Source of the DNA: Hydractinia symbiolongicarpus
Taxonomy: Eukaryota; Cnidaria; Hydrozoa; Anthoathecata; Hydractiniidae
Assembly: GCF_029227915.1 (NCBI RefSeq)
Contig: NC_079886.1
Coordinates: forward strand, 5,766,001-5,830,000
Length of the DNA stretch: 64,000 bases
Reading direction: 5' to 3'
Position 1 is the first letter of the stretch; each line of letters opens with the position of its first letter. This document shows positions 16,758 through 58,400 of the stretch, one piece after another. Both the position numbers and the translations under genes were made by a program. The notes beneath the pieces are model-generated. The model did not search any database, was not told where the DNA came from, and was given only the letters and a program-made list of their open reading frames with translations.

Positions 16758-18189
16758 TATATAGTTTCTTTGTTGTAAATTTTTCCAATGTCTTTTATTC
16801 TGACCCAACTTAGAACATGGCTCGTCTAAAGACGGGGCGGACTATATTTTGACACGGTTACCCATCTTTCAACACAGTGGCTCTTCTTTTGACATGCTGC
16901 CCTGTGAACTGACGATGCAGGTCCAGCTTGCAACATGGCGTTAAAGGATGTTTGCATACATCAAGACCTTGAATTCAACTTAAACTAACTTCAATAAAGT
17001 GAAAAAACAACTTTTTATAGCGTATATTGTTGTATATAGCTGGCTTAGATTAAATCGAATTATGCATTTCATGTTTGTTGTGTGTAGCAAAAACAACACT
17101 ACTTGGAAATTCTTGGTGCAAGACTAGATCTTTAGTTTTCATCCTTGACAAGATTGAATAACGAATGCATTTTTCAAAGTAGGTAAAGACTTGCTTGTTG
17201 CATCATTGGAAATGTTTTTAACCAGATGGTTGTGTGCATAATGACTATCTAAATAATTATGACTCAGATACCAAGATATAACATTCAGCTTGGTGTAGTG
17301 TAATGTTATATGTATTATAGCTAGCTAGCAGAATTTATGACAAGGTATTTGTATTGCTCATTACTTTAGCAATATAGTATATTTGTAATAGATTTTATTT
17401 AGAGAATTCAAGATTTATTCTCATCCATGCATTTTTTGTCATCTTTAGTCCTCTCCTATAGAGACTGCATTTGTCCACAGTTGAGTCTGGCCTGTCTTAA
17501 ATTTTTTATCATGTTATAGCTGTCTCTAATAAGTGTCAAGTGTCAATAGTTGCGCCTGTCCCATCTTATGACACATTTTCTAAAATTGCAAAAGTCCTTT
17601 GTAAACAATCAAGTTTGTCCCATTTGATGACCTGTTCTTTAGAACTGAAAGATTTCTTTATCAATAGTTTGGCCTTTACCAATTTAAGACCAATTTGCAT
17701 AAATTTGTCCAAAGTTGGGCTGGGCTCATTAATAGATGGGTCATCCCAATTCCGAACGCTTCTTTTGACAGGTCAGTCCTGTGTCCAAAGTTGATAAATA
17801 AAATGTATGATAGAACACTTTTGTGGTCATTGTTTGCATTTTGAAAACTTGTTTTGTGCCTTTAATAAATAGTTAAGTCTTTTTAATTTAATTTATTTAA
17901 TGTCTGCAAAAAATTACAAACATAAATTTATTCACCTGCATTACTTTTTTAAATTCGTGTTTCAGGTGAGCAATTGTATATTTATTTTTGTGATTACATG
18001 CTCTGATACACAAACAACAAGTAAAGTTAAAAAAAAGTTGAGCAAATTTTTGCAAGTTAAAAAAACACATCAACATTCACCTAGACATGCAAATGTGAAT
18101 TAGAAAGGCTACAGTTCTAAGTAACAAAGAGTAATTTAAATGATTTTATACTATAAACATGAAATAGAGAAATAAAGTTAATCAGTGAA
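16758..18189. other. Upstream region of PTPMT1, no gene recognised
   Basis: Two patches (16800-16940 and 17455-17790) hold loosely repeated phrases such as TTTGACA, CCCATYTTATGAC and AAAGTTG. They look like a degenerate minisatellite and give an 84-codon spurious frame. No coding exon is supported. Confidence 0.4.
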
Positions 18190-18753
18190 ATGGCTACCTC
18201 TTGGCTATCTCCCTTTTGTTCACATCCTATTGGGGCACGGATTTTGTACTATCCAACATTACTGTTTGGAATAATGAAAACTAGTGGTGAGAGACGATGG
18301 TATGATAGAATAAATGATAAAGTCATCTTGGGTGCTCTACCCTTACATTCCACTGTAAAGAAACTAGTAGATACTGAAAATGTTACAAGGGTTGTCACAC
18401 TAAATGAAAGTTATGAAACAAGATGCATATGCCCAACAGAAAATGAATGGAACTTAATGGGTGTTCAACAGATTTGTATTCCAACAGTTGACTACAATAA
18501 TGCACCAACAATGCAACAAATTAAAACTAGTATAGAATTCATCAAAGAAGTTGAGAATGGCAAATCAGTATATGTACATTGTAAGGCTGGAAGAAGCAGA
18601 AGCGCCACTGTGGTGCTGTGTTATTTGATCTCCCAGTATGACATAAATCCAACGACAGCTTTTGATTTTGTTAAAAGTAAAAGACCACACATAGTGCTTG
18701 GACAGGCACAAACAAATCAAGTAGATAATTTTTTTAATAACTACAGAATGTAG
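18190..18753 (+). CDS. PTPMT1: PTPMT1-like mitochondrial dual-specificity phosphatase
   Basis: A 187-residue protein encoded in one exon. PTPMT1 dephosphorylates phosphatidylglycerophosphate at the inner mitochondrial membrane in cardiolipin synthesis. The family's conserved WY.RI...VILGALPL segment (residues 37-52), the NESYETR loop (72-78), a TVD aspartate (Asp101) and the P-loop HCKAGRSRSAT (130-140, catalytic Cys131) are all present and in order. Length is close to the human enzyme. The N-terminal ~30 residues are hydrophobic with few charges, compatible with membrane or mitochondrial targeting. The ATG at 18190 is chosen because homology begins soon after it. Animal PTPMT1 genes are usually split by introns; here none is present. 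The two GGACT-like genes follow on the same strand. Confidence 0.93.
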   Translation: MATSWLSPFCSHPIGARILYYPTLLFGIMKTSGERRWYDRINDKVILGALPLHSTVKKLVDTENVTRVVTLNESYETRCICPTENEWNLMGVQQICIPTVDYNNAPTMQQIKTSIEFIKEVENGKSVYVHCKAGRSRSATVVLCYLISQYDINPTTAFDFVKSKRPHIVLGQAQTNQVDNFFNNYRM

Positions 18754-30495: not shown

Positions 30496-33400
30496 ATGAA
30501 GTTTAGAGCAAAATTGGTTGATATTGGATGTATTCAGCAGTTCATAAGTATGTTCTATTTATTCTACCAAGTAGTATGTTTTTAGTTGCCTGTTATCTTC
30601 AATGTACACAATAATAAATAAATTAAATTGCATTGTATTTCTCAAGTTCCTTTTTATTAAACAAGATGTCAGTTCCATGAGATGGTTTTGAAACGGTTGA
30701 AACTTTTTTGCCATACCCTATGCTGAAAAAGATGTCAATTATTTAATAGACATTGTCAAGTTATTTGATCTCAAATTTATAAGAGCAGTGTTATTTGCTA
30801 TTAATCTATTAAATAAGCTGTGATTGGGTAACAACAGGCTGTAACCTGGCCTTCTTTTTTGACCAGAAATGATGTACTACTGTAAACGCCCCACTAAATT
30901 TAATTTTGGACACACCAATACCTGTACTAAGAGCATCAATCAAGTTTGTGGTATGGTTTGTGTAGGCACACAACCTTCAAAACTGGGCCAAACATAAAGT
31001 GTATATTCAGGATTCAAACCAAAATGTATAAAATGGGTTACAAGTCCCATATTTTGTAGAGTAAAAATTATTATAATTGAGAAATAGCCGTTTAACAGCT
31101 AAATGCTTAATTGCATCCTGATAATAAAGATTTGAATGTAATAATGGCTTGAATGTAATAATAGCTTGAGAATTTTATTAAAAAAGTTGGAAATGCCACA
31201 AAATGCATTTTTGGTAAACACCTTTGGTAAACAAATTCTGCCAGAAACAGAAATGACAATGTGCTACACAGACAATTAGAAAACTGCAAAAAAAAGGTTT
31301 ATTATTTCTTAAACATGATAGTTTGGTACGTGATTTTTTTGGAAATCTCTTTCCAAAATCAAAAACAAACTGTTAATTACTGTTAATTTAGGTAATTGTA
31401 ATTTTTTAGACCTGGATGCAAGTGAATTCTCTTGTAGGTTTGGTCACCAAATCTTGGTTGGAACTTCTGACTTTCTATCGATTTGCAATCAATTTTTCAT
31501 GTGTCTATTCTGTTGACACGATTTAACAATTAGACATGATACTTTCTTTTAGGTTTCTGATAGTCTTATTCATAGTTAAGGTGCTGGTAAGATGTAAGTG
31601 GGTTTACAATATACTGAAAATGAGATCTCTTGCTTGGTAAAACGCAAGAACAATAGTTTTTGCCTTTGATTAAGCTATGCTCTGTTTTATTCAAATTAAC
31701 AGTGAATTTGATATGCTGGTTGAGACAGCTGATATGCTCATAGAAACTCTTCTGCATGGGATCTTTTGATTTTGGCATATACGCCATCAATGAATCTCTT
31801 CCAGATCTTTGGTCTGTCTGATGTAAACAATGCTGTTGTACTTGCATGTAACGGTTCTGTCTGTTTGAATGTAGAAGTTATTATCAAGTATAGTTTTTGT
31901 CAACATAAGTTTCACCAAACACCAACACAAATTCGTTACTGGTATCTTTTTCTTTTCACCAAATAATGCATCATTCCTTATGGTTTTCATGCAGAATGTT
32001 TTGCTGCATCCACCAATCAAAAAAGCAGCAAATTATTGCAAAGGTAAAGATCCTGCATTTGCTAAAACAAATGAAGGACAAGGAAAAGATCTCAAACAGC
32101 CAACAGAGGAGCTTTGTGTAACGTTAACCACTGAGCCCATTATTCTTAAGGGTAAAAAAAATATAATTTAATGACGTGAAAGAAAAGGAACAGAAATCTT
32201 CACCTTGCATTATGTTGGTGTCAAAAGCTACTTCTGTTCTCGATTTTATTATATATTATATTATTTTTGTCAAATTAGGTTTCACACGTTACATACTGTT
32301 GGTTTTGCTTTTTTTTGTGAAATTTTGTGGTGAAAAACCACAGTACAATATACCCATGTATTATTTAGGAACTAGTCGATAAGGCCCGTGAAGAAATCCA
32401 CTTAGTAAAAAGGTCAATAAAAAGAAATTTGTTTTTGATGTTTTGCTGACGTCAGCAGTGCAGTGCAGATATAAAAATTTGCTAAATTTGCTTATTCTTT
32501 GTCTGTAATGTGTAGAGGTTGAAATGCTGGTTAAAATAATGTACAGGTTCATATGTTCTCAACGAACGCCTAAGGAGATATCAGGGTTTAAACATTTTGC
32601 TGACATCAGCAAAGACCCGTGAAAACCTTGTATACCTTTTGTCTTCATCGTATATATCTCGATACGCTGATCAAGAAAATGTATAGGACCATGTAATTTT
32701 GAGAAATGGTTGCAGGGTTTAAAGGTTTTTTTAAGACATCATCAACCCGTTCATTTCAAAACGGATTTAGGGACCCAAGTTTTGGAAAATTACCCAAATT
32801 GGTCCTAGGTGTCCCTAGTTACCCACGCGGTGAAAAATCATTGACGTCACCACCTCGTTTCCAAGTTAAGATTAAACCAACAATAATTTTTTCTTATTAA
32901 CAATACATTTCGGGTAAATTTACCCATCATCAGGTCTAAAAGCAAATTAAACAGTAAAAAAAACGGTATAAAATATTCAGAATTTCTATATACATCTATT
33001 ATTATGCAATTTTAAGTAGTCCTAATAAGAAAGTACTAATTTAAGTCTCTTTTTTTAAGCCTCATAATCTGTTAATTTAATGACACTTCATTAAATTTTT
33101 ATCATGAGGACCTCGTACAACTTCCTGTGAGCGATTGAGTTTTGGTACTTCGTGAAAACGTTTTTGGGGAAGGACTGTGTCTGTGCATTATAATGTATTA
33201 TTTTCCTGTGTTTGTTTTTGTGGTTTAGGATCCGAAATATTGGTTTGGTGATTCTAAAGCCAACCTTACCATTTTGATTGACCAATCTGAGTTTTTTTGG
33301 TGTTCACATACCCCAAAATACTTTCTAAAATAGGAGCTGTTATGTTGTTAGTTTTTTTTCTTCTTATATCTTGCTATTTTGTGTCTTTCATATGGCTGGA

Positions 33401-36400
33401 CGGAGAAGTACACTGGAATTTTCTATGGCGACATAGCTAGTCTACAGAATAAAATATGTGTGAACTAAAATACCAAACAGGTTCTGCAAGGATCTCCACA
33501 CGAGCGATTACATTTAGATTATAAGCATAAAATTGCGTCACTAGATATTTTTATTTATTTATCAACTAACTGAAGTTGCATGAAAGCTAAGTTTGCCAGA
33601 AATAATCAAATTGTTTTTACATTAGAAATATTGTCAACAGTTTCCAAGATCTGTAAGTCCTGCACCTTACGCTTATCAGGAGGTCAGGTGATATTTACAC
33701 AGACAGAAAGAGTTGCAAGTGGTGGAACGAACCTCTGGGTGGAAATTAACCAGGTTAGTATATAATGTAGATATGTTCGTGCGTTATATTATTGAATACC
33801 ATCAGCGCTAAGTGCTTATGCTTTTTACATAGGAATTCTTTAAAATTGAAATATACACATTTTTTTGTAGATATATATATATATATATTTTAAAAAAAGT
33901 TGTTAAAAGAAGTATAATCCTATAAAACGTTTAAAACTGGTTTTGTAGGGTACGTAAGTATGCTGTTATGTTTGTGGAATGATTCATATCCACCAAACAG
34001 TTTTAGATTACAATCAGTACATGAACGTAAAAACAACCCCCTCAGTATTCAATCCTGTCACTACTTATGTTACTCTTGTCAACTGTTTTGTTCAAAAGAG
34101 TTTTTAAAGTTGAAGCTAAAAAAAATTTGGATTGGACAAAACTTCTTTGAGAAAACTTGAAACATAATAAGTCCGAGTCTTTAGTATATTAATTGAATTT
34201 ACTTTCGTATGTATGGCAAGTCACGTGGCTTTTAGTTCTTAAAGCGCGTGCAAGATACGAAAGCATGTCAATTAGTTCTCGAACTGTAAACTGTATGCTA
34301 ACCTAAGATTTTCGGTATGTGTATCAATATTTTTCACAAGAGCTACACAAAATGGGTGGATAATAAAGGAATAACAAGAGAAATTTTTTATAGTTTACAT
34401 TTTATTAAACTAATTATTCAATCAATTAATTGATTTGAAGGAAGTATTAATCCAACCGAATGACGTCATTTCTGATCCCTATGACACCATTATATTTTTT
34501 TCAATACCTTGAATTTCTTAAAATGCAATATTCTACATATGTACCAAGCTTAATGACATAATAAACCTTTTTGCACATATGACGTCATTTTTGAGTCTAA
34601 TGACGTCATTAAAATTCTTTTTTTAATATCAAAGCATTTATTGGTTCATAGTCCGCAAACATGTAGGCATATTATGTTGTGTTAGTTCCCAGAGGCGCAA
34701 CTAAGATGACACACCATTGGTTCGAGTCTTCTCAGTCTCAAAGATTAGAAAATAAAAAGGTTATTTTTGGTTGAGCGCAGCGAATTAATGGTTATAATAT
34801 TATTGTTTTTTGAACTGTAAAGATTTCAAATGTTTAACACTATTATTTTCATTGTTATTTTACAACCTTTTTTTGTTTTTTTAGGGAGATTTTTTTGATG
34901 AATACCGAATTGAAGGAAAAGACGACAGAAATGAAATATACTTGGAAGTTGTAAACGAGAACCTGCTTCGTGCTATGAAATCTGGACAAAATGCACAATC
35001 CATTAAAATCAAATTAACAAAGAAACAAACGCCATGTCTTACTTTTGAAATTTCTTTGGTTTGTATTTTTTTAAAGTTTTGTTTCTAAAATTGAATAAAA
35101 TCTGCATGGTGCATAGCATGTGATGGCTAATACACGGTTACCGCCTCATAAAACTTCTTGAAACTCCTTGAAACTACTTAGAACTCCTTGAAACTCCTTG
35201 AAACAACCTCAAACAAAATAACACTCTTGGAAGGTTGCTAAGCTAGAAACTCCTGGAATCTATTTCTTCTCCGAAACTATTCATAGCTATCAGGCCATGA
35301 AATCTGTCTGCAGCTTTTGAGTCTTATAAAACCCTGATTTTGTCAAAGTAGCTCCTGAAAAAAGGACTGCTGGAATTTACTTTTTTAAAACGAATAGCCA
35401 CCCTATAATACGCTTTATTTTTTTATGAGAACAATGAAGCTGAGAATTATTAAAAATAAAAACAAAGCAAGAACAATGATCAGATTGAAATTTTACTGAA
35501 AAGACACAAGGAAATAAATTTAAAGCAAAGATCTTTCCAGTTTTAACGATACCGCGAAACTTGTAATTGGTCCCAAAAATGTGTAATGTACAGTAAAAAT
35601 TTTTACTGTATCACACATGTGAAAAATTTTATTACTTTTATATTGTGAAAAAATCCTTATTTTATAGCCCTCTCTCACCAGTCACTCACTGAGAAAATCC
35701 TTATTTTATAGCCCTCTCTCACCACTCACTCACTGAGAAAATCCTTATTTTATAGCCCTCTCTCACCAGTCACTCACTGAGAAAATCCTTATTTTATAGC
35801 CCTCTCTCACCAGTCACTCACTGAAAAAATACTTATTTTATAGCCCTCTCTCACCACTCACTCACTGAGAAAATCCTTATTTTATAGCCCTCTCTCACCA
35901 CTCACTCACTGAGAAAATCCTTATTTTATAGCCCTCTCTCACCAGTCACTCACTGAGAAAATCCTTATTTTATAGCCCTCTCTCACCACTCACTCACTGA
36001 GAAAATCCTTATTTTATAGCCCTCTCTCACCACTCACTCACTGAGAAAATCCTTATTTTATAGCCCTCTCTCACCAGTCACTCACTGAGAAAATCCTTAT
36101 TTTATAGCCCTCTCTCACCACTCACTCACTGAGAAAATCCTTATTTTATAGCCCTCTCTCACCACTCACTCACTGAGAAAATCCTTATTTTATAGCCCTC
36201 TCTCACCACTCACTCACTGAGAAAATCCTTATTTTATAGCCCTCTCTCACCACTCACTCGCTGAAAAAATCCTTATTTTATAGCCCTCTCTCACCACTCA
36301 CTCACTGAGAAAATCCTTATTTTATAGCCCTCTCTCACCACTCACTCACTGAGAAAATCCTTATTTTATAGCCCTCTCTCACCACTCACTCACGTAATGT

Positions 36401-37526
36401 CGTTCATGATGTTCCAGTGGCTGTCATTCCTTCAAGATTTTGGGATGATTTTCAAAAGCCGCTTCTACCTAATTACGATGTGAGATTTTTTTTGTTATCA
36501 ATTTTGTTTTTTATGACCCGACATCATCCTTGTGTTTGTAGTTCATATAAATTCATAATCGCATCATATCCTCATTTTTTAGTGTAAAAACCTTAAATAT
36601 CTTTAATTCTGCTGCACGCTTAGTAGTTTTTCATCTATTTTTTTATAACACTTTAGATTAAAATCAGCATTCCTCAGTTAAAAATAATAAAGAACATAGT
36701 TGAAAGGTTAAAGAACATTAGTGGATTTATGGTATGTTAAATTGTGATACTGTCGAGTGTTGGTATACCGACAAAATTGTTTTAGACAAGTAGATGTTTT
36801 CCACGGATAAAAATTTGCCAGGGGGAATGTTCGTCATATCGAAAAGCATTTAAGAGTCAGTTATAATTTTATGTTTTGGCTTTAATAATATTACGGGAAA
36901 TATTTTATCTTTTAAAAAAATTTAGTAAGTAAAATACAATACCATTACCAAGATTTGAAACGTTGTGGCTCAACGTTACATAGTTGTTGCTCGTTGCTTT
37001 CATGACTCCACACTTGATTAAAAAGTCACACAGAGCAACTAGAAAAGGGCGTAAAATCACCAAAAAATTGGAGCTATCCCACCTAAGATTTTAGCAGAGA
37101 CTATCGAGTCCCAAAAACCCAAATATATTACTATTTATTTTATATTATTTTTTTATTATTTGTGATTATTATTCTTGCATTAAGTAACCTCACCTTGTGA
37201 AACCACACCTTTAGGTTATCTCAGCGAAAAGAAATGGAGAATTGAAATTTAGCGTGGATACTGACGAAGTTATCGTCACAACGCATTTTAAAAATATGGA
37301 CGTGGATGGAGACACTTTGAGAAACGCAAGTGAAGATGAAGAAGACGATGAGATTGAAGCTCGTATCGATATCCAAAAGTTAGTCACATTTCTTCACGTT
37401 CAGCAATTTAATCCAACGAAAGCAATATGCGCTTTAGTGCATGGTCAAGCAGTGCATATGTTTTTACAATGTAGTGATGTTATGTTTCAATATTTTTTGC
37501 CGGCAATGAATGTGACCATATCTTAA
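30496..37526 (+). CDS. HUS1: HUS1 checkpoint clamp component, six coding exons
   Basis: HUS1 forms the ring-shaped 9-1-1 clamp with RAD9 and RAD1, loaded at DNA damage to activate ATR. Coding exons: 30496-30547, 33626-33753, 34885-35058, 36372-36479, 36657-36731 and 37215-37526. All have GT-AG borders and matching phases (phase 1 after exon 1, phase 0 thereafter), totalling 282 residues against about 280 in human. Recognisable segments: MKFRAKLVD at the start, SCTLRL, NEIYLEVVNENLLRAMK, IKIKLTKK.TPCLTFEI, HDVPVAVIPSRFWDDF, VTTHFKN, IDIQKLVTFLHVQQFNPTKAIC and QYFLPA at the C-terminus. Intron 1 (3.1 kb) carries a truncated Helitron. Intron 3 carries the 44-bp array of 35647-36393, whose last unit supplies the acceptor and first codons of exon 4. 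A GAAACTCCTTG short repeat lies at 35150-35205. Confidence 0.95.
32372..32880 (-). mobile_element. 5'-truncated Helitron copy in HUS1 intron 1
   Basis: On the minus strand the element ends GTGGATTTCTTCAC-GGGCCTTATCGA-CTAG, with T following. This is the same 3' hairpin, spacing and CTAG end as at 15958-16757. Matching blocks upstream include TGACGTCA/TGCTGACGTCAGC phrases, GATCAAGAAAATGTATAGGA (complement of the first copy's TACATTTTCTTGATCAGCG), ACCCACGCGGTGAAAAATCA and ACTTGGAAACGAGGTGGTG. Similarity stops near 32880, so the 5' TC end is missing. The 64-codon frame at 32706 is a by-product. Confidence 0.7.
35647..36393 (+). repeat. 44-bp x 17 array repeating the HUS1 exon 4 splice acceptor
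   Basis: Seventeen units of exactly 44 bp with no indels; the acceptor G falls at 35667 + 44n up to 36371. Each unit reads GAGAAAATCCTTATTTTATAG and then CCCTCTCTCACC-A(C/G)T-CACTCACT. The last unit is the real junction: TTTTATAG is the acceptor and CCCTCTCTCACCACTCACTCAC (36372-36393) is the start of exon 4. Variation is small: a C/G change (G in units 1, 3, 4, 7 and 10), GAAAAAAT in units 1, 5 and 15, ATACTT in unit 5 and CTCGCT in unit 14. The CTCAC phrases also fit a branch-point consensus, so each unit may be a complete 3' splice module. Confidence 0.97.
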
Positions 37527-39181: not shown

Positions 39182-41608
39182 TCATTCCATTTGACTTTCC
39201 ACGTCAGATGGTTGTCTTTGAGACATCGTCGTCAAAATATAAGTTCCAGCTGGAATGTTTTCTACATAAGTATAATTGCATAACAGCTCCAAGAGTTTGC
39301 TCCGATACTTCATACCAACTAATATCATAAAGTTTATCAAGCAAATCACAGCGTAAATAATAAACGAAGCGTTGGAACCTATGTAAGTCACCATCACTCC
39401 TCCAAGTATTCCTCCACCACCGTGGCCTAATCCCCAGTATATACCATGAAGCAATGCTTGTAATGTAACCGGCGTTCCAGGAATTAGCCCAATATAACAT
39501 ATAGATGCTGTCCATATAGACGCAGAAGATACACCTTGTAAAATTTCTAGTCCTATCGAAAGAACGGGTTGCGTTATTATGGAATACGCCAGTAAGCGTA
39601 AAACGTTGGAGAATAATCCGATATATAATACGTTTTCACATCCGATTTTAAGTATCAAGTAACTGGAGAGCATATACGTTATAACTTCAGAGAGACACTG
39701 AACCGCCGATATCACACTAAATAAAAACTGAGTTCCGCCAAGGTCGTGTAAATGCCAAAACAAGAAGGTATGAACAAAGCCCATTGCTGAGCCAGAAGTT
39801 AATAAAGTCAATCCGAAGCATATGTGCTGAGAGTCGGTGATCATTTTGATAGCTTCCCATAACGACTCCGTATAGTCGGCGTTGCTTTCCACGGGTTTAA
39901 AACTGAAAAAAGCTGCACATATAAACGCTAGTGCCATCATAATTGCGTAAACGTAAAAACTTAAAATATAATCAACATGGCGACCTTCTTTGCATTCCTC
40001 AATTTGTATGCTGCTAACTACTGCACCAACAACAAATGCACATACACCCCAACCGAAAGCTCCCCACAATCTTTGGTAGCCGTATTGATAGGTTCGATCT
40101 CCTGTACAAAAAAAAGATAGATTTAGGAGAAGGAGTACACACCTTCCTCCGTTGTGAACATAAACCACACTTATTAGAAGCTGTGGTACAGTGGGAAACC
40201 ACGAAGTGTACACAAAGTACATTTCATTCAAAAAACTGTTTATATCAACATTTAAGTCCATTTGACTTACCTAATTTTTCTAATGTTGCAGTGTCAGCTA
40301 AAGTGGCAGCTGGTGAAGCGAGCACGGTTCCAATTATTGTGATAATAATCAAGACAATAAAAATGTTTAATGCATTTTGTGTAGATTCCAAAGGTTCATT
40401 AGCTGGTAGAGATTCAATATTGTCTAAATTAGAAAGAAGATTGTTGAAAATAACTCGAACACCTCTTAACTGGGAAAATTTAAATAGCTTTTTGCGAAGA
40501 GTCAGATTATTAGATCGTAAGTTATATATCCTTAAAATTTACAGATTTCTTTACTTCCTATGATTTTTTAGTTTAAACAATAGATGAGTAAGTATATCAT
40601 AAAGAAATATCTACCTAGCGGCCATGGATATTCATCATCTGTGTTAAGCGAGTCAAACTCTTCCTCGATTTCATCAGTTGCTAGCATTCTTTCCAAAGGT
40701 GTTATTCCATTCTGCGTAGAATAATTCTTTTTGCTCCACAATTCAGACTTCGTGTTTACACTGCGCAATGTTCTTGAGTAGATAACAGCTAGAAATCCGT
40801 CAACAAATCTTCTTAAACGTTGCTTATTTGCATTCACTGTCGATGTATCATCAAGCTTGCTTTTCTGTCTTTTTAAATGGGTAAGTGTGATCATGTAAAC
40901 ATCATCAGCTGGAATGGTATTTCTTTTATGTCGCAATTTCCTAACAGCCTCAGAATATTTAGCTACTTTGTATTTATTATTTCGATCCTTAGGTCTAGAC
41001 CTCGCGTAGTCAGGTAGTGACACGGAATTATTCAGAATGTGATCCACTGGATTAACCAATCGACCTACTTGTGGAAAATTTATTATTCCTCCTGTAGCGT
41101 TACACGCTGTTTCAGGAGGCACTCTAACAATTGAAATGCTGTAGTTCGTAGCTAACCAAGCTCCTATTGACATTAACAATATAACCTTCTTAACATTGTA
41201 TGTGTCAGCTAGTGCACCCCATAATGGACAAGTTCCCATCTGTATAAAGGGACGTATACCAATAAGAAAGCCCACTTGCTGTGCTGAGAGGTATAATTGT
41301 TTGTAAAATACAGCTAAGTAAGGGAATAGCGAACCAACAGCTCCATAAAACAAGAAGTAAAAAGCTTTATATATTAGTAAATCTTTAGCTATTCGAACTT
41401 TTTTGTTCTCATCCTCGGGTGGTGCAATTTGTTGTTCTTCTTCTTCATTTACTTTGTCATCCCCTGTTATGTAAAATTTATCGTCATCAAGACCACGTGG
41501 TAAGAAGACTTCTGATTGGCTGATATGAAAATGTTCTGAGCTTGATACTGGGGATAATAAAGATGGTGATGTAGCTTGAATGTTAAATATTGCACTGCTT
41601 GCAGCCAT
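39182..41608 (-). CDS. MFSD6-like major facilitator transporter
   Basis: Minus-strand exons 41608-40615, about 40462-40271 and 40101-39182 give 701 residues. MFSD6-family proteins are multi-pass membrane proteins of poorly defined substrate. Exon 1 has an acidic cytoplasmic N-terminus, then KAFYFLFYGAVGSLFPYLAVFY, then GIRPFIQMGTCPLWGALADT (the family's RPF..PLWGALAD loop) and a long polar loop before YPWPL. Exon 2 holds one clear membrane span (LNIFIVLIIITIIGTVLAS). Exon 3 starts GDRTYQYGYQRLWGAFGWG, a family hallmark, followed by about eight spans and a GHGGGGILGG stretch. The exon 3 junction fits well. The exon 2 acceptor is uncertain: phase requires AAGAG at 40463-40464, although a stronger CCCAG lies 7 bases upstream in the wrong phase, so a missed microexon is possible. 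Confidence 0.85.
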
Positions 41609-41945
41609 ATTTACTTATTTATTTATTTATTTATTATCCACTCTCTCTTTCTTTAACAATTCATCCAAATATTTCATGTCTTTATTGTTTTTCTATAAAA
41701 GGAATATATCTTGATATATTTTTATATTCATTATAGATTAATAATTTTCGAGTTTACCTAATAGGTTATGACACACTGATTTTTACATTTTTTTATTTTA
41801 TATATTTTACATTTGTATCATGTTTGTATATTTACGAATTTTATTAATATTTACAGGACACATTTTAATAGCAGTAATTTGTTACTGACGATGTCGTGTC
41901 CTGTATAAATATTCATTATAAATAAATAAATAAGTAAATAAATAC
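41606..41945. repeat. Foldback flanked by opposed TTTA/TAAA microsatellites
   Basis: A (TTTA)n tract at 41609-41632 and an (AAAT)n tract at 41918-41945 face each other. Inside, ACAGGACAC (41855-41863) and GTGTCCTGT (41897-41905) form a smaller inverted pair. The start codon of the MFSD6-like gene lies at its edge, so its 5' leader region would run into this structure. Confidence 0.5.
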
Positions 41946-42290: not shown

Positions 42291-42990
42291 TCCACCCTAC
42301 CCACTTACACACCCTACCCACTTACACACCCTTCCCACTTACACCAACCTGCCCACTTACAACACCCTTCCTACTTACACCACCCTATCCACTTACACCA
42401 CCCTATCCAGTTACACCGCTCTACCCACTTACACCGCCCTACCCACCTGCACTGCCCAACCCACTTACACTGCCCTACCCACTTACACTGTCCTACCCAC
42501 TTACACCATCCTATCCAGTTACACCTCCCTACCCAGTGACCTCACCCTACCCACTTACAACACCCTACCCACTTACACCACCCTACTCACTTACAGCGCC
42601 TACCCACTTACACCACTCTATCCGCTTACACCGTCCTATCCAGCTACACCGCTCTACCCACTGACCCCACCCTACTCACTTACATTACCCTATCCACTCA
42701 CACACACCATCCTACCCACTTACAACACCCTACACACTTACACCTTTCTAACCACTTAAATCACCCTACCCAGTTGCAACGCCCTACGCACTTACAACAC
42801 CCAGTCCAGTTACACTGCCCTACCTACTTAACCCTCCTACCCACTTACACCACCCTATCCAGTTACAACACCCCATTCCCTTCCACCGCCCTACCTACTT
42901 ACGCCACTCTACCTTCTTACAATACCCTGTCCAGTTACACCGCCCTACCCACTTACACCACTCTACCCACTTGCAAACCCCACCCACTTA
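42291..42990. repeat. ~18-bp minisatellite CCCTACCCACTTACACCA
   Basis: About 700 bp of an 18-bp unit with frequent substitutions (CCCACT/CCAGTT/CTCACT) and small indels, roughly 38 units. One strand is strongly C-rich and the other G-rich. The 106-codon frame at 42774-43094 is a by-product. Confidence 0.9.
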
Positions 42991-44601
42991 CAACACAAGA
43001 CAAAAAAATACTGTGGTATGGAAGACAGAAAAACTTTCTTGAAATTTTTCTTTGTCATTTCCCACTGCACATCCACATTTTCTCCTTCTGCTGATGATTA
43101 CGAAGTCATAATACAAAACTTCTGAGATGTCAGACTTGGTGAAATTCTATCATTTGCTACATTCGTGCATAACTACCAAATTACTTATATAAGAAATAAT
43201 ATCGCCAGTGTCGAAAGTTTGTGATAGCCAGAAAATCTTAATGCAATGAATGTTTTATGATGTTGACATTTCTCTCAAGGTTTGAATGTAACGCGTGGAT
43301 ATACATTTATGGCATAAAAATTATAAACAATGAAAAATATTAACAATATTAAATTACAAATAAAAACTATTTTATTTTTGAATGAACACTGTGATTTCAG
43401 AAACCTTCTTCTAAAAGTCTACCTTCTATGTTCGACTTTCCTCATTTTCGGTATACTTTGAAATTTGTTTACTGCTTTGATGGGTTTGTACCGACCACGT
43501 TGCTACGAATGCGCAAATATAGTTGCCATGGCGATAAGAGTGTCTGATCTTTTGTCCATTTAAACGTTTACTTGCTAATTGATTTTTTTCATTGGAATTC
43601 AAATTCTTTAAATTAAAACCAGAATTTAACTCTTAAATTATTCTCATACTGATTTTGGAGGTGAAGAAAACTCTGATAGTTCACAACAACAAAAAACAAA
43701 ATACAACAAGCTGGAACCCAGCACCTTTTAGTTAAGAACTAACAGACACCAACGTCGAAGGGGCCTAGAGATGAGGTTAGTCACATCTACCTTATTTTAA
43801 CAAAATTTGACGCAGACAAAAATTTAACCAAAATAGCAAATTTTAAAAGACTTGATAAGACTTTTTTCGACTGGAAGCTTGTCATCCTTCCACAGTTGTT
43901 AATACTCACTCATAATGTGGGAGTGGGAATTTATGGAAGACGGAAATAACTTTTATGTCGTCAACACCTCCCACCCCATTCCTCTCTTGCTCCTACTTTT
44001 AAGAACGGAAGGGTTGGTGTGATAGAAGCCATACAAGCATAGCTACAATGTGCTATCATAAAACGTATTCCATAATACTTCGGCTAAAACAAATAGATAT
44101 TGCGCAAAAGATGCTATTAGATGTTATTATTTACAGCATTGCCAGAAGTTTAGTCCAAAACATTTTTTCTAACCAATCCAGTAGTGTGGATTTCCCAACT
44201 AAATAAAGGCTCTGATGATCAACTATTTTCAAACTATGTTAAAAAAAATTCCACAAGTGTAGCCTTTATAAATCTTTTACTATATTTTACTAAAGTTAGC
44301 ATCTCACTTCTGTTGGTTATTTGAAGTTGTTAACTGGAAAGAATTTAGAAAAATCTAATGATACTCTAATATGATTGTGAGTGTTTATTCAATGGATAAA
44401 ATTTTACTCAGTGCCAAAATCCATATTTTATTGGGGAACCATGCCTGAAAAGATTACAAAAAATTTGGTTTGCGGATATGGTAAGATTGGTTTGTGTTCA
44501 TCAACTTACTTTTTTTTGAATCTTCAAAATCTACAGTGGCTCTTTCGATGATTTTTTCATGAAGAATCTAATAAAAGAACTTATCGTAACACTTAGAGAA
44601 A
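42991..44601. other. Non-coding, no gene recognised
   Basis: AT-rich with no splice-bounded coding sequence or repeat pair that I can support. Confidence 0.4.
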
Positions 44602-46880: not shown

Positions 46881-49800
46881 CTAATGCGGTAAGTATGGTT
46901 TTAAGCAGTCTGCAATAATTCCCGCCATTTTTGTGTATCCTTCAGGTGTCATATGTAAATGATCATCCCAAAGTCTTGCCTCTTGAACAGGACCCAGTGA
47001 ATGTCTCGGTAACTTTCTAGCTAAATCACATAAAACTGTTTTTCCTTTACTAGCAAATGCAAAATTTCTTAAAGCATCGTTGATCCTTTGTCTCATTTTT
47101 AGTAATGGCTTATACTCGGGCCAAACTTCGATTGAGTTCTCTGGTACAGTTAGAAGCACAGTGTGAGCGCCGTATTTATACGCGGTCTGGTGTAGCTTTT
47201 CAATGTCCTTTGTTATACGCGGTTGCCAAACCGTTTCTAATTGGTTCAGAAACTCCTGATCGTCAGCAAAGTTTTTCACATGTAAAATATCATTGGTTCC
47301 TCCTAGAATAATTATCCAATCATATTCCGACGTTGCGTTGCCTAGAACCATGGGTAATCGATGTGTCATTTGTTTATGAGTCATTTCACCCACAATCCCT
47401 TTGGTGTCAGTGTAAACGGGCACGTTTGACCTATAATTTAAAACGTTTTGTAAGCGACCGCAGTATGGATAAAAATTCTTTCCATGAGCGTTATAACCGG
47501 CTGTTAAGCTATCTCCAAAACATAAAATCCTTATCTTGCTCGGGTTATGCAAATTAACCACGTGCGGACGGGGCGATGAAAAATGTCTTGGACTTACGGA
47601 TTGAGGAGATTTAGTGGGTGCCTTCCTTTTGTCTGCTTGTTTATTTTGGTTCAGACTGTTCGGTGAAATACCCAATGCTTTTAGACCTTTTACAATCATA
47701 TTTAAGTTAGCTGCTATGGTTGTATGTCGAATTTTTTGAACAGTATGTGTCGGGACATGTTTTGTAGTCTTGACGTGCGTATGTCGGGGCGTCGTTTTAT
47801 GTATACGAATTGTTGTACGTTTGACGGTAGTATGGTGACGTGATGGTTGCATCGTCGGCAAAGCTGTAGGTATACCGCTCCTCTTAAAACTATTTTCAGA
47901 CGTTTGCCTGGACACAGATTTCATAACGGCCGGTAAAATTTTAGCGACCATATTTTCAATGCTGTTCGTATTGTCGTTACTATTTTTCGTCATATAGGCG
48001 TCATGATGTTTCATGATGTCGTCATTATTACCGTCATCCCGTTCATTTGCGTCGAGCATAGAAGTCTTTTTTTCTGGATTATAATCGAAGTTATCGTTGT
48101 TATCTTCGTCGTTTGAGTCATGATGCCGTAAACGTCGGTATCGAATATATTTGGAGAAGTGACGTTGTTTTCGTTTAAAGCCTAAAGCAAGGACAATAAT
48201 ACAATTCCAGTTAAAGAGAATTATAATGAAGTTGGTTGGTTTTGTTTCAACGATAATAGTTCTCAATGTCATAAGGCTAATGTATAAATTATCATTGAAC
48301 AGCTTTTAGTAATAAAGTTGAAACATGAAATGTGTTTTTATAACACTTGATAAAGAAAGCCTCAATCCGTAAAAACGAGGCAAATTCGTAAAAATTTAAA
48401 AACCAAATTAACATGATAAACTTGAGTACATCAAGAAATGAGGCTGTCATAATAATAACACTTTTACTTTCTATACGAACTTTATATAACTTTATCGTAA
48501 AATTAAGGAATACTCACCACCCTCAGCGCTTCCTCCATCCTCCTCTTCATCTTTTTCCTCAAATTTTATGTGTTGATCTTTCGATCTCTTTTTCTGAACT
48601 TCATCGTCTTTGTCACCACGATTATCTCCGTAAGAATGCTTTCTGGTTGTTCTGGTTGAATACTTTTCATCGTTTTTATTATATTCTCCATCATCGGGAT
48701 TATTTTCTTCATCATTTTGGTGATTGTGTTTATGATAAGAATGCTCATATCGGTCATCGCCATAATATTTTTCATCTCCATCATGTATTTCGCGATCTTT
48801 AGATTTCCGCTCCTTAGAATGTCTACCATTATGTTCGCTTTTGTGATCCTGATTGCTATCTCGATCATCAATCCGATTTTCATTCCGATTTTCATCTTTC
48901 GCTTTAACATCATGTTTATCATCATCTCCATCATCTTTCCCATTTTCATTATGTCGTACTCTGTCATGTATCTTCGCGTGATCTTCGCGATAACGCGCCT
49001 CATCATCATGTTCTTTTTTGTGATTTTCACTATACAGCTCATCATCGTCCTGATCTTCTTTATCATTTTCATCATATCGCGTTTCATGAACATTGTCTTT
49101 GTGTTTGCCATGTTTATGTGTTGTTGTGGAGTATTTGTCATTATAGCGCGTCGTGGTATGTTTATATTCTTTATCACCATGTTTCGATGTAGGTTTCTTC
49201 TTTTCCTCTTCCTTTTTCTTCTTCATAAGTTTCTGCACTCTTTTCACCAGTTCCTTCTCGTTAACTTTTTCTTTTGATTGCTTTTTCATTTCTTCTCTCA
49301 TGTCAGTTATCATTTTCATGAGGTCACCAAATTTGTTTGACTTCTCCGTAGTTTCACGTTTATGCTTGCTACTTTTTGTTGTTGGGTGTTTCTGTTGTTT
49401 TTCATTATGATGGAGATCATGGTGAGCTTTACTCTTGTGAATACGCGACTCTGTACCGTCATCGCCGCTTCCTGAGAAATCATCCAATATCTAAATTTAA
49501 TAAATAATGGTCAGTGTAGGGCAAAACTAGCGAAAGCTTGGGATAGAGAAACATGAAACGTAATTTGTGTATTTTTTTTCAGGTAATTAATTTTTTTCTT
49601 AAAATACGATGCTAATTTTATTTTAGTTTATCAAAATTAATTTAAACAGTTATCTTACCTGGTCGCCGCTGCCACTTTCACTTTCATCAGACTCGCCTTC
49701 CCCAGAAGCATCAGTGCTCTTCTTCGTAAATGGTATCGAATTGCGCTTTGAGCTGTCTCCTTTGTCATTTTTGCAGCCATAAATAGAGAAGATCTTCTTA

Positions 49801-52800
49801 CCCTTTTCTCTTTCTTTCTTTATAGATAACTTTCCGGTAGATATTTTATAATCTATGTCATAACACTTTCGCGCGACTTTATGTTTTCCGCTCTTTCTCC
49901 CACATGCTCGTATTTTGTAAAATATCTTTCCATGCTTTTTCTTTGGTCCTTCAACTTTTTTCACATCTCCTGTTCCTCTCGAAAACGTTTTGATTCGTAC
50001 GCATGATTTTAATTTGTACGTTTTGATTTCCTTTCGCGTTGTCTTCTTTGCTTTAATATGCTTGGTTGTCTTCTTTGATTTAGAGTGTTTTGTGGTTTTG
50101 TGTTGTTTTGTGGTTTTGTGATGTTTTGGTGTTGTTTTGTGGTGTTTTGATGTTGTCTTATAATGTTTAGGTGTAGTCTTGGCAATCTTATGTTTTTTCT
50201 TTGGTATTTCTTTTCGTTTGTGTGCGTCACCATTTTTGCTTGTTTTCTTCTTAGCGTGTCGTTGTCGTGTTTTGAGCATTTGTCGTTTCAGATATGTGAT
50301 GCGTTCTAAATACGTCATACGCTTTTTAGGTTCTTCAATGTCAAAATCTTCATCTTCGCTTTCTTCGGATGTTTCATCCCCAGAAGCTTCATCTAACTGA
50401 TTGTCTTCGCCACCCTCCTCAACACTGCTTTCCTTGATCGTATCATTTTCGTCATCATCGTTACTAGTGTCGTCAAAATCATGCGTCTCTTTTCCACGTC
50501 GTTTATCGTATTCGTTTAAATCTTTAATTAAATTCTCCGTTGGTGATGCTTCCTTCTTCTTGGCATACATCGTACCGACGTTTTCCTTTTTTTCGTTCTC
50601 GTCGTCGTTATTGTCGTCGTCCTCATTTAACGAACTTTCAAACTGCCTGTCTGTTTTTTTTGTTTTCGATTCGTCGTTTTCATCGTCGTCGGCATTTTCG
50701 TTATCCACCATTTTAGCAGAGCTGATTTTCCTGTGTATTTTTGACGCTTTTATTGAAGATGTTGGAATGGCAACGTCGTAGTTTTCGTCGTCGTCGTCAT
50801 TATCATTCACTTCTTTAGATTTTTCCTTATTAATACCGTCAATACTAACTTCATCATCATCCTGGTCAATTTTACCTTCATTTTGTGATCCTGAGAACAG
50901 AGTTTTATAAGAGTGTGAGTGCAACCCAGGAAGGTCACTTGCTTTAAGTTTTTGATGTGGAAGTTCTTTTCCTCGTGAGTCTAGATTGTCCCCAAAGGAA
51001 GGCTTCGAAAACATATTTTCATGAAATGTTTCTAATTTGTGTATTAAGTCCTGCTTTTTCTTGCTACTGTTGTCATCTCTGCCGTTATTTTTGTCATCAT
51101 CGTCGTCGTTATTTTCGCCGTCTACAATTTTGTTTCTTCTCTTGCTGTTTTCGTGTCCAGCTCGCTCATACTGTTCGTCATCTATATCGCCATTTTCTTC
51201 AGCTTCCACAAATTTCCGTCTTTCGCCGTCCCAATGAAGCTTGTCGGGAAATATTTCTACACTGTCGTCATCAAATGTACCAGCATGTTTATTATGTCTT
51301 AATCGACGCAGATCGTCTAGAATAGAATTTTCTAAAAACGCTTCAGATTTTGGCGTCGTTGTAGTTGTGGATGTTGAGGTTTTCTTGGTTGTAGGTTTTT
51401 TTGTCGTGGTGGTCGTGGTTGTAGTCGACGTTGTCGTTGGCGGCTTCGTGGTTGCTACTGTCGTGGTTGTAGTTGTTGTCGCTACGGTTGGTGCAGTAGA
51501 TTTTGTTGTAGCTTTCGTTGTTTTTGTTGTTGTTGTCGTTGTTGTAGTGGCTTGTGTCGTTGTTGTAGTGGCTTGTGTCGTTGTGGTAGAATGACGCTTT
51601 ACATGCTTCTTGCTTTTCTTTTTCGATTTTGATTTCCTCTTCTGTTTTTCTTTTTCTTGTTTCTTCTTTGTCGTTTTAGATTTCTTTTCCACTTTGTGTT
51701 TTTTCTTATGAATATTTTTTGTTTGTTTCTTAGACTCTCTCGTTTTCATATGTTTCATAAGCTGTTGTTCTATCGCTTTATCTTCGTCGTCGTTGTCTTC
51801 CTCATCATCGTCTGAGTCAAAATCGTCATGAGTTGGCACAATTCGCCGTGTGGTTGTTGTTACGACTACTTGTTCGTCGTCATGAACTGGTGTCGGAAAG
51901 TCATCCCGAACAACAGTAGGAGCACTATTGGCACCATAATCATAGTAAGAACCCACATCATGTGAATGTTTACGCGGTGTGAGTGTCTTCCAGTCCTCTC
52001 CGCTACCTATTGTATCTAAATCTGCCATTTCGTCGTCATCATTAATAGCAAGGTTATTTTTTAGGCCAGCATTAACACTTGGAGAGAGTTTACCAATGCT
52101 TGCGGAGGCGAGCTTGTCAGCTAGTGCTATGCTCATGGGTGCAATAGTCGTGTAAACTTCCGGCAAGGGTAAGATGTTTGGAGTAGTTGCTCGTAATGTT
52201 GGTTCTTGAGGGATGTTTTGCCGTTTATTCAAACTTTCTGTTTGCCATATCCATGTGTATCCATTCCAAACAGGTCGACCGTAATATCGCGACGTCGTGT
52301 AAAATGGCGTTGTTGTAGCTGTTGTTGTTACTGCTGTTGTTGTTGTTGTTGGTAATCTTAAAAATGGCGTTTTCGTTGTCGTTGTAGTGGAAGGTGACTG
52401 AATAGGGGTTGTCGTTCCGGTTGTTGTTGTTCCAGCTGTTCTCGTTCTGGCTGTTGTCGTTCCGGTTGTAGTTTTTGTTGTTGTTGGAGTTGAGACGTTT
52501 TTAACAGTTTGGTTATGTATATCAACAGAGGAAATTTGCGCAGTTTTATTTTCTGCAATTCTGTCTAAAAATTTTGACCCATCTTGTAGGTAATTCATGT
52601 TAGAAGTTCTATCATTTGAACGCAAGGGAATAATACCACTGTTTGCATTTGGAATTTCACTTCTAAAATTCTGAGTAACAGTACTGTTATTGTGTGTAGT
52701 GTTGTTATATGGCTTTGACACGACGGGATCTTTAAGACTGCCATTTTGAAATTGTGCAAAGCCATCATTGATAGGCGTTGCAAGGTCTTCAGTTGAACTA

Positions 52801-53852
52801 CTGTTTGTGGATGCTGCAATGTTATTGGTGGATGAGTGTAAAGTTTTATTTTCGATTCCATTGTCTCCAGTTTTTATGTTAGTATATGTTGTCTTGTTAC
52901 TTATATCAGTATCAGTTCGTTCCGTAGCGTTGTGTAACGAGTTTGATGAATTTTGAAAGTTCTTTATAGGGTGGGTGCGATTTTGATGGTGTTTGTGGAA
53001 ATGATGTCTGTGTCGTTCCTGCTTCATTAAAATACATACTTTGAATAAAGCTAAAGCAAATACTGCAGCAAATACGAGAACTGTGAAATACAAAGCGATG
53101 GAGTAGAAATTACGACAGCATAAAAGTCGGTAGAACGTTTCGCGAAGTTTACTTTTCTGTACCTCATCTTGTTTTGTTCCTGTTGGTTTTTTCGAAGCCT
53201 TTCGTCTGGTTTGTAATTTATTCGCGGTTGATACAAGTTTTTGGTTTTTGTCAAACTTTTCTTCGTTCTCTGCGTTGGCAGTGTTGCTCGATTTTTTGGT
53301 GTTATTCTGACTCTGTTTAAATTTTCCAAAGGTTGTTAACTTATTCTCATTGGAACTGAATAACTTTTTGGTAACCTGATTTATATTCTGTGGTAATTCA
53401 GTAGCCTTGACCTTATCTTCAGTGGAACTTAATAGTTTAGTGTTTCCCTCGCGAAAGTTTTCTTCCGTGCAATCTAGCGATACGTTATTCTGGTCTTTTT
53501 TTCTACCTTGACTTGTAAGTTTTTTAATTAGGTTTTTGTCCAATACATTAGATGATTTATTAACAACTACAGATCTGTTGAGAAGTTCCTGCTTTTTTCT
53601 TAGTACGGCCCGTCGTCGTTCTATAAAGTTAAGATCGCACTCACTAGCTTGAAATATTGATTTATCGTCAACTGATTGGTACAATGAACTAGCGCGTTTG
53701 ACTCTGTTATCTCGGTCAGCCTTGGTTGATAATTTCTTTCTCCGCGGTCGTTGAGCAATAGAGAATGGTTTAGGTGCGCTGTCTGTGTAATCGAGATTGT
53801 TAATTATTGCAGTACTGCTTTCTGAGGTGGGAGAAGTCGAATCCTTGATCAT
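46881..53852 (-). CDS. Giant type II membrane protein with C-terminal SGNH/GDSL hydrolase
   Basis: Minus-strand exons 53852-49659, 49490-48518 and 48181-46881 join in matching phases (0, then 1) at good GT-AG sites and give 2155 residues. Residues 1-240 are basic and polar; ~250-275 (FYSIALYFTVLVFAAVFALALF) is the single membrane span, so the rest is probably lumenal or extracellular. Next come an N-glycosylation-rich stretch (~290-455), mucin-like Thr runs (~455-520 and 756-835), Lys/His and Asp/Glu blocks, Lys-Thr-Thr-His repeats (~1225-1270), a small Cys-containing basic module (~1275-1375) and an extremely charged exon 2. The last ~215 residues form an SGNH esterase: FGDSLTAGY (Ser1947), GGTND (Asn2019) and DHLH (Asp2129, His2132). 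An in-frame stop just upstream fixes the ATG. The architecture is not one I recognise; the enzyme class is firm, the substrate unknown. Confidence 0.88.
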
Positions 53853-57643: not shown

Positions 57644-58400
57644 GGCAGCAATGTTGATAATTGGTTCAATAGTATTCCACTAAACGTGTATATGTATACA
57701 AAAGGTATACAAATGGTAGGGACAGTTCGTCGTAACCGAATAGGAAAATGTTCAGTATCGTCAGAAAAAGAAATGAAAAAGAAAGGTCGCAGAACTCATG
57801 AAGAACGTGTCGCAACAATAGATGATGTTGATGTCTGCGTTGTCTCGTGGTTTGATAATAAGGTGGTAACCCTGCTATCTAATTTTGTTGGTAGCGAACC
57901 AACAAGATATGTCAAGAGGTTTTCAAAAAAAGAAAACAAACATATCGAGATACCGTGCCCAAACCTTGTTACGATTTATAACAAACATATGGGAGGCGTA
58001 GACTTTTTAGATTCGCTTTTAGGGTATTACCGCAACAAAATCCGGTCAAAAAAGTGGTATCACAGAATTTTCTTCCACTTAATTGATATGATGGTAGTCA
58101 ATGCTTGGATTTTATGGAGAAACCAAGATCCAAATGTGCCTTTAGTAAAGTTCAAACTAGCTGTTGCTGATTTATTGTGCCATTACTAGAAAACTCCAAA
58201 TAGAAAGCGTGGTCGACCATCAATTAATATTGGCGTTGACCGTCTGGGACCTAAAATACCAATACAATACAATCAATGATTCTCGCACTCGCTGCAAATA
58301 CCAAAAATGCTCTACATTAACCTATGTATGTTGTGAGAAATGTAATGTCGCTTTATGTTTAAATAAGGACATGAATTGTTTTAAGAAATTCCATACATGA
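57644..58400 (+). pseudogene. Broken piggyBac-family transposase, C-terminal half
   Basis: After an in-frame stop (57641-57643) the frame reads NVDNWFNSIPL, GTVRRNRIG, KKKGR, WFDNKVVTLLSN, IPCPNLVTIYNKHMGGVDFLD, YYRNKIRSKKWYHRIFFH and VNAWILWR. These are the conserved blocks of piggyBac transposases; the Asp of VDN and of GGVD correspond to the second and third catalytic aspartates. The first-aspartate region is missing. The frame ends at 58189. KRGRPS continues in a second frame (about 58205) and the cysteine-rich zinc-binding tail (RCKYQKC..CCEKC..C) in a third, so at least two frameshifts are present. It is described as found, not as a functional gene. Confidence 0.88.

What the first reader, a model, noticed from the sequence alone, without database searches (positions are those of the whole stretch)
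35647..36393. A 3' splice site of HUS1 amplified into a 17-unit array
The intron 3/exon 4 junction of HUS1, including the acceptor TTTTATAG and the first 22 coding bases, is repeated 17 times at exactly 44 bp. Sixteen identical decoy acceptors therefore precede the true one. Because 44 is not a multiple of 3 and the unit read from an acceptor reaches TGA in the second unit, every upstream acceptor except the sixteenth leads to a stop inside the array. The sixteenth shifts frame and stops at the end of exon 4. Only the last acceptor makes HUS1. Splicing normally favours the first AG after a branch point, and each unit also carries branch-point-like CTCAC. Either the cell reliably picks the most distal site, or HUS1 output is tuned by unproductive splicing that could scale with copy number. 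The near-perfect homogeneity implies recent or ongoing expansion, so alleles should differ in length.
Basis: partly seen in the sequence, partly recalled or inferred. Interest (0 to 1): 0.92.

Follow-up and report, generated by a model that had tools for sequence, protein, structure and literature searches.

The report
HUS1 splice junction repeated seventeen times
In what is probably a colonial hydroid's genome, the boundary where one exon of the DNA-damage checkpoint gene HUS1 begins has been copied 17 times in a row, so only splicing to the last of 17 near-identical sites gives the protein; such "mirages" are known from lancelets, and this looks like a new example in another phylum.

Summary
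35646-36393 is exactly 17.0 copies of a 44-bp unit: the last 22 bp of HUS1 intron 3, including the AG, plus the first 22 bp of exon 4. I rebuilt HUS1 (six exons, 282 codons, Pfam Hus1 267 bits). It aligns without a gap to solved HUS1 across this junction, so the unit very probably is the native junction. In searches of the 480.9-Mb own assembly, array and gene matched only here. Only acceptor 17 keeps the frame.

The kind is known: "mirages", minisatellite duplications of exon-intron boundaries in amphioxus genes, reported not to disturb splicing. The assembly's size fits Hydractinia symbiolongicarpus, a cnidarian. My searches showed no mirage outside lancelets, though human boundary repeats are in print. 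The best reading is a recently expanded mirage, spliced mostly to the last acceptor, probably by exon definition. Copy-number tuning of HUS1 is possible but untested: no RNA was available.

The parts
35646..36393 (+). 17-unit, 44-bp tandem array of the HUS1 intron 3/exon 4 junction
   Evidence: TRF 17.0 copies, 97% matches, no indels; unit table; all 8 listed assembly matches lie here
35646..35689 (+). Unit 1: joins unique intron 3 sequence on the left; A at unit position 4, shared with units 5 and 15, is perhaps the ancestral base (inference)
   Evidence: unit table
35668..36371 (+). From the first exon-like base after decoy acceptor 1 to just before the true exon 4; acceptors 1-16 have their first exon-like bases at 35668, 35712, ... 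36328, every 44 bp
   Evidence: in-silico splicing of each acceptor
36350..36393 (+). Unit 17: holds the productive acceptor and the first 22 coding bases of exon 4
36372..36479 (+). HUS1 exon 4 (108 nt, phase 0/0), residues 119-154
   Evidence: gapless alignment to solved HUS1 over the junction
30496..30547 (+). HUS1 exon 1 (start codon)
   Evidence: weak match of its own (E 0.08)
33626..33753 (+). HUS1 exon 2
34885..35058 (+). HUS1 exon 3; donor TTTG|GTTTGT of intron 3
36657..36731 (+). HUS1 exon 5; premature stop of the acceptor-16 transcript at 36679
37215..37526 (+). HUS1 exon 6 (stop codon)
35151..35204 (+). A second, unrelated short array (10 bp x 5.4) in the same intron 3

Best explanation
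It is a 'mirage': a minisatellite born inside a gene by tandem duplication of one exon-intron boundary, here the 3' end of HUS1 intron 3 plus the first 22 coding bases of exon 4, then expanded to 17 near-identical units. Shown here: the anatomy, the frame consequences, and that the searches found the array at one place only. Inferred: the spliceosome mostly joins exon 3 to acceptor 17, because only that acceptor lies next to unique exon 4 sequence and a 5' splice site 108 nt away (exon definition). Messages from acceptors 1-15, if made, would be removed by nonsense-mediated decay. For acceptors 2-17 the duplicated coding bases now supply the pyrimidine-rich, CTCAC-bearing branch-point region of the next unit.
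For: Array and unit table. Intact 282-residue HUS1 only via acceptor 17; Pfam Hus1 267.1 bits, E 2e-79. HUS1 of solved structures (3g65_C; human by recall) aligns gap-free over the exon 3/4 junction, E 5.7e-81 overall. The seven residues coded by the array's last unit (PSLTTHS) score higher on the Pfam profile (267.1 bits) than seven X (262.3), a seven-residue deletion (253.7) and each of 7 random AG-preceded peptides from the window (259.1-264.4). Their BLOSUM62 score against the human residues is reached by 1.9% of stop-free 21-mers of the window. The whole-assembly DNA search returned 8 matches, all inside this array, and the HUS1 protein search 6 matches, one per exon, all here, which speaks against a dispersed satellite or a paralogue. 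Lancelet mirages have the same build, and the papers report normal splicing (PMC3087553; PMC3902484; passages read).
Against: No RNA was available, so use of acceptor 17 rests on the intact reading frame. If the 17 acceptors were chosen equally, only 5.9% of messages would be productive; if they are met in 5'-to-3' order, each decoy must be passed 95.8% of the time to leave half productive. Local splice signals do not tell acceptor 17 from acceptors 2-16. The native tract is the most purine-rich of the five HUS1 acceptors (9 of 17 pyrimidines, against 10, 11, 12 and 15). The homology tests of the exon half are only moderate: the margin over the best random control is 2.7 bits, and 4 of the 7 controls also beat seven X. 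PMC3087553 itself notes that the units could act as cryptic sites. No unamplified relative could be read.
Confidence: 0.75

Rival explanations
1. Dosage rheostat: a real share of messages uses decoy acceptors and is degraded, so functional HUS1 falls as copy number rises, and array length variation between alleles or clones tunes the checkpoint.
For: 15 of 16 decoys lead to a stop 66 nt downstream, at least 127 nt before the exon 4/5 junction (from the coordinates); 14 of 17 acceptor 23-mers are identical. Human ABCA7 shows that an intronic VNTR with a splice donor in its unit goes with lower expression and altered splicing as it lengthens (PMC5954066, passages).
Against: Lancelet mirages are reported to splice normally. 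Nothing here shows variation between individuals or any regulation.
Confidence: 0.12
2. Exon 4 skipping: the crowded acceptors interfere with one another, so that exon 3 is often joined to exon 5, giving a stable in-frame HUS1 lacking 36 residues (119-154).
For: Exon 4 is 108 nt, phase 0 on both sides, and the skipped frame is open to the normal stop. ABCA7 exon 19 skipping, also in frame, rises with VNTR length.
Against: Exon 4 is well conserved with solved HUS1. The ABCA7 unit carries a donor; the consensus unit here has no GT.
Confidence: 0.07
3. Pre-existing satellite landed at, or recruited to, the exon 4 acceptor, rather than amplification of HUS1's own junction.
For: The exon half is a simple CT/CACTCA-rich sequence, of a kind that can arise by chance; the residue-level homology tests are only moderate (1.9%; 2.7 bits over the best control).
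Against: The unit was found nowhere else in the 480.9-Mb assembly (that tool skips simple repeats and very common words). Gapless alignment over the junction.
Confidence: 0.05
4. Assembly artefact or wrong copy number.
For: Tandem arrays can be misassembled, and the draft version of one lancelet mirage appears to be (PMC3087553).
Against: The variant bases are scattered over units 1, 3, 4, 5, 7, 10, 14 and 15. If this is the H. symbiolongicarpus assembly, it was built from HiFi reads with N50 13.2 kb, and its scaffold 12 is one contig (PMC10411563); 748 bp is easily spanned. That C12 is scaffold 12 is inferred.
Confidence: 0.03

Closest known systems
Lancelet 'mirages' (Adh3, globins BflGb6 and BflGb9, troponin C, PGBD5)
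   Same: Minisatellite-like tandem duplication of an intron-exon boundary; many units carry splice signals; at BflGb6 the unit is the 3' end of an intron plus the 5' part of the next exon, as here; Adh3 units of 10-72 bp bracket ours.
   Different: BflGb6 has 6 and 3 units (two haplotypes) of 150-160 bp, 81-100% alike; here there are 17 units of 44 bp, 97% alike, every one with its AG. Lancelet RT-PCR supports normal splicing; nothing could be tested here. Those reports are from cephalochordates; this assembly fits a cnidarian (inferred).
Human internal tandem repeats at exon-intron boundaries (PMC2812944)
   Same: Minisatellites, on average 30 bp x 4, some of which lie at exon-intron boundaries and change splicing.
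   Different: Found in primate-specific segmental duplications and read as forming new introns; the HUS1 unit has an acceptor but no GT in its consensus, so it cannot make new introns within the array as it stands.
ABCA7 intron 18 VNTR
   Same: A splice signal in the unit, a large copy number, a neighbouring in-frame exon.
   Different: The unit (25 bp) carries a donor, not an acceptor, and lies in the intron.
Tandem acceptors (NAGNAG) and first-AG choice after a branch point
   Same: Competing 3' splice sites.
   Different: Sites 44 nt apart, each with its own branch-point candidates, so simple scanning from one branch point does not decide. The scanning rule is recalled; only a listing was seen.

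Membership tests
Mirage (minisatellite of an exon-intron boundary) | Tandem duplication spanning an exon-intron boundary | tested here: met
   Each unit is 22 intronic + 22 exonic bp; exon start supported by gapless alignment to solved HUS1 and, moderately, by the Pfam profile
Mirage (minisatellite of an exon-intron boundary) | Units carry splice signals that could act as cryptic sites | tested here: met
   TTATAG|CCC in all 17 units
Mirage (minisatellite of an exon-intron boundary) | Units homogenised at one locus | tested here: met
   97% matches; all 8 assembly matches lie in this array
Mirage (minisatellite of an exon-intron boundary) | Length instability between alleles or tissues | not testable with these tools
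   One assembly; no second haplotype or population data
Mirage (minisatellite of an exon-intron boundary) | mRNA spliced normally in spite of the repeats | not testable with these tools
   No RNA; only the intact frame
HUS1 (9-1-1 clamp subunit) | Full-length Hus1 domain, single locus | tested here: met
   267.1 bits, profile positions 1-287 of 288; six exon matches at one locus
Dispersed satellite / transposable element | Unit present at many loci | tested here: not met
   Matches at this array only, with that tool's stated limits on simple repeats and common words
Intron formation from tandem repeats (human boundary repeats) | Unit holds both a donor and an acceptor | tested here: not met
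   No GT in the consensus unit; GT inside the array only in the five units with G at position 36

The most novel reading that the evidence does not exclude
The array is a heritable, and possibly somatically variable, splicing rheostat: each added 44-bp unit adds one near-identical poison acceptor, so HUS1 protein, and with it the DNA-damage checkpoint of a long-lived clonal animal, falls in steps with array length. Because HUS1 itself guards DNA replication, shortening or lengthening of the array could feed back on its own stability.
Probability: 0.1. Interest if true: 0.85.

Novelty: new member of a known kind. Interest (0 to 1): 0.52.

Why it matters
It is a natural experiment in 3' splice site choice: 17 acceptors with nearly the same local sequence, of which only the most distal is productive, in a gene found once in its assembly. 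Local-signal models cannot tell acceptors 2-17 apart, so whichever site is used shows what exon definition and distance contribute. If the host is Hydractinia, an established laboratory animal, RNA and allele-length tests are straightforward. It would also extend mirages from lancelets to cnidarians.

Tried and rejected
Dispersed satellite: not supported by the whole-assembly search. Retrocopy or second HUS1 that would show the ancestral junction: none found. Relatives in viral contigs: 0 exact matches to a 25-mer, and 36 pattern matches, none a relative. Higher-order three-unit periodicity: not significant (lag 3, 6 of 14 agree, permutation p 0.18; best of lags 1-8 is lag 4, p 0.12). RNA structure hiding the acceptor: units 16-17 plus exon 4 fold no better than shuffles would by chance (z -1.12, 26 of 200 shuffles as good). 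Rfam: no match in the window at the gathering threshold. An array in the neighbouring ZIP gene (window-relative 86611-86771) looked like a second mirage at first, but by my reading of the sequence it lies inside an intron. Naming the host from GFP relatives (PF01353), sampling kinase loci (PF00069) and finding RAD1 (PF04139): not completed. The original Adh3 mirage paper and Zhuo et al. 2007 are not held, so I rely on how PMC3087553 and PMC3902484 describe the former.

Literature basis: PMC3087553, PMC3902484, PMC5954066, PMC13119343, PMC10411563, PMC2812944 and PMC11830802 were read as passages only; everything else was a search listing. 'No mirage outside lancelets' rests on the searches in an open-licence library; some of those listings were cut (20 of 21, 25 of 36, 12 of 20). 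No paper in that library holds both 'Hydractinia' and 'HUS1'.

Full report
What is there. Bases 35646-36393 are exactly 17 head-to-tail copies of TGAGAAAATCCTTATTTTATAG|CCCTCTCTCACCACTCACTCAC, with no indels and 10 substitutions in 748 bases. The 21-mer over the acceptor occurs 17 times at exact 44-bp steps; in 100 shuffles of the window the largest number of matches was 0. Substitutions fall at only four unit positions: 4 (A in units 1, 5, 15), 10 (unit 5), 36 (G in units 1, 3, 4, 7, 10) and 43 (unit 14). The array ends cleanly: the base before unit 1 (G) does not match the unit's last base (C), and the base after unit 17 (G) does not match its first (T), so the copy number is a whole number and the duplication ends share no microhomology.

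The gene. Splicing six exons (30496-30547, 33626-33753, 34885-35058, 36372-36479, 36657-36731, 37215-37526) with GT-AG introns gives a 282-residue protein. Pfam calls it Hus1 over profile positions 1-287 of 288, 267.1 bits, and HUS1 of solved structures (3g65_C; human by recall) aligns to residues 1-277 at E 5.7e-81. Over the exon 3/4 junction that alignment has no gap: FEISL|PSLTTHSRNVVHDVP against VSVELLSMSSSSRIVTHDIP. So exon 4 very probably does begin at the array's last acceptor, and the exon half of the unit is very probably old HUS1 coding sequence. Two tests gave moderate support. Residues 119-125 add 4.8 bits over seven X and beat each of 7 random AG-preceded peptides drawn from 1752 in the same window; but the margin over the best control is 2.7 bits, and 4 of the 7 controls also beat seven X. 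Their BLOSUM62 score against the human residues is reached by 1.9% of stop-free 21-mers of the window, both strands, and by 1.9% of the AG-preceded ones.

Only here. A search of the window's own assembly (480,894,487 bases, 76 contigs) with two units returned 8 matches, all within this array; the tool warns that it skips simple repeats and very common words. The HUS1 protein returned 6 matches at E up to 1, one per exon, all at this locus. This speaks against a dispersed satellite, and no unamplified second copy was found.

Which animal. The organism is not given. G000 (480,894,487 bp, 76 contigs) is within 28 kb and two sequences of Hydractinia symbiolongicarpus HSymV2.1 as tabulated in PMC13119343 (480,922,349 bp, 78 scaffolds, GC 35.87%). 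The 264 kb I held has GC 34.1%. I take the host to be that hydrozoan or something very near it; this is an inference from size and composition. If so, HSymV2.0, its predecessor, was built from HiFi reads (N50 13.2 kb) and its scaffold 12 is a single contig (PMC10411563), which makes a misassembly of 748 bp unlikely.

Frame arithmetic. Each of the 17 acceptors was spliced in silico. Acceptors 1-15 add 22 array-coded residues, of which the last 15 are foreign to HUS1, and stop at residue 141, at the first base of the unit two further on. Acceptor 17 alone gives HUS1. From those coordinates, the stops of acceptors 1-15 lie at least 127 nt before the exon 4/5 junction, so decay is expected by the usual 50-55 nt rule (recalled); acceptor 16's stop is 50 nt before the exon 5/6 junction, a borderline case.

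Splice signals. 14 of 17 acceptor 23-mers are identical. The array holds 36 AG in all: by the unit table, 17 TAG, 14 GAG at unit positions 2-4 and 5 CAG in the units with G at position 36. Each unit has three CTCAC motifs in its exon half, whose A lies 34, 27 and 23 nt before the next unit's acceptor. Acceptor 1, facing unique intron, has only TTTAT-type candidates at suitable distances and no CTNAC in -60..-15. Pyrimidines in -60..-23 rise from 21 of 38 at acceptor 1 to 28 of 38 at acceptor 17. So duplication gave acceptors 2-17 a new branch-point region made from coding bases. Nothing local distinguishes 17 from 2-16. What is special about 17 is downstream: unique exon sequence and the intron 4 donor 108 nt away, against 152 nt for acceptor 16 and 812 nt for acceptor 1. 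If the last acceptor is used, exon definition is the natural reason (inference). The native tract is the poorest in pyrimidines of the five HUS1 acceptors, 9 of 17. The consensus unit has no GT, so no new exon or intron can form from consensus units; GT arises inside the array only in the five units with G at position 36.

What is known. [quoted passage not shown] BflGb6 has 6 and 3 units on two haplotypes, made of the 3' end of an intron plus the 5' part of exon 2. PMC3902484 adds PGBD5 and troponin C. Both say splicing does not seem to be disturbed, though the first notes that units could act as cryptic sites. Human boundary repeats (PMC2812944) and the ABCA7 VNTR (PMC5954066) show that such arrays can alter splicing, and in ABCA7 exon skipping rises with length. 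The HUS1 case meets every defining feature that could be tested; length instability and normal mRNA could not be tested. I therefore file it as a new member of a known kind, with more and more uniform units than BflGb6, and probably in another phylum. The statement that no mirage outside lancelets was found is limited to the searches.

How common in this genome. In 264 kb around HUS1 (the window plus twenty 10-kb stretches) there were 78 TRF rows; 10 rows, 9 distinct arrays, had period at least 15 and score at least 150, and the HUS1 array scored highest. I listed ORFs beside the other eight but read only the two in a ZIP-family gene base by base; the other six were not tested for splice sites. 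At one of the two, a 20-bp x 39 array ends on the A of the acceptor TTACAG|GCATTTGC (Pfam Zip on the joined exons, 69 bits). Its 784 bases hold one AG. So it is an array of the acceptor's upstream side without the AG, the reverse of the HUS1 case. Two arrays touching acceptors in 264 kb suggests that the genome is prone to them, but this is too small a sample for a rate.

Verdict. The kind is already described, and published examples are reported to splice normally, so the silent-mirage reading leads (0.75). The rheostat reading is open and easy to test.

Noticed in passing
L026:9126-9909 (C12:5849126-5849909, about 19 kb beyond the window end): A 20-bp x 39 array ends on the A of the acceptor TTACAG of a ZIP zinc transporter gene; its 784 bases hold a single AG, so this array repeats the upstream side of an acceptor without its AG.
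   Followed up: partly
35646-36393, minus strand: Read on the other strand, the array holds 17 TATAAAA and 28 GTGAGT motifs, so an antisense transcript would meet TATA-like and donor-like signals again and again. Probably a by-product of the acceptor sequence.
   Followed up: no
35646-36393: The G at unit position 4, absent in units 1, 5 and 15, lets UGAGA pair with UCUCA in the same unit, enclosing the acceptor in the predicted fold; overall stability is not unusual (z -1.12 for units 16-17 plus exon 4).
   Followed up: partly
42292-42996: An 18-bp x 39 array of CCACCCTACCCACTTACA, about 0.7 kb upstream of an MFS-type transporter gene on the minus strand (39182-41614).
   Followed up: no
501-653, and window-relative -5393 to -5174 (C12:5760607-5760826, L024): Two arrays of nearly the same 20-bp unit in opposite orientation (CGCGTCCTTCTATTACGCCT and CGCGAGGCGTAATAGAGAGA), about 6 kb apart.
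   Followed up: no
49650-53864, minus strand: A 1404-codon open frame rich in Thr/Lys/Asp repeats, mucin-like in look (not searched); near it a GDSL lipase-type protein at 46881-48305.
   Followed up: no
57644-58189: Fragment of a transposase matching DDE_Tnp_1_7 (piggyBac-type by recall).
   Followed up: no
18163-18753: An open frame with a dual-specificity phosphatase domain (DSPc), apparently in one exon.
   Followed up: no
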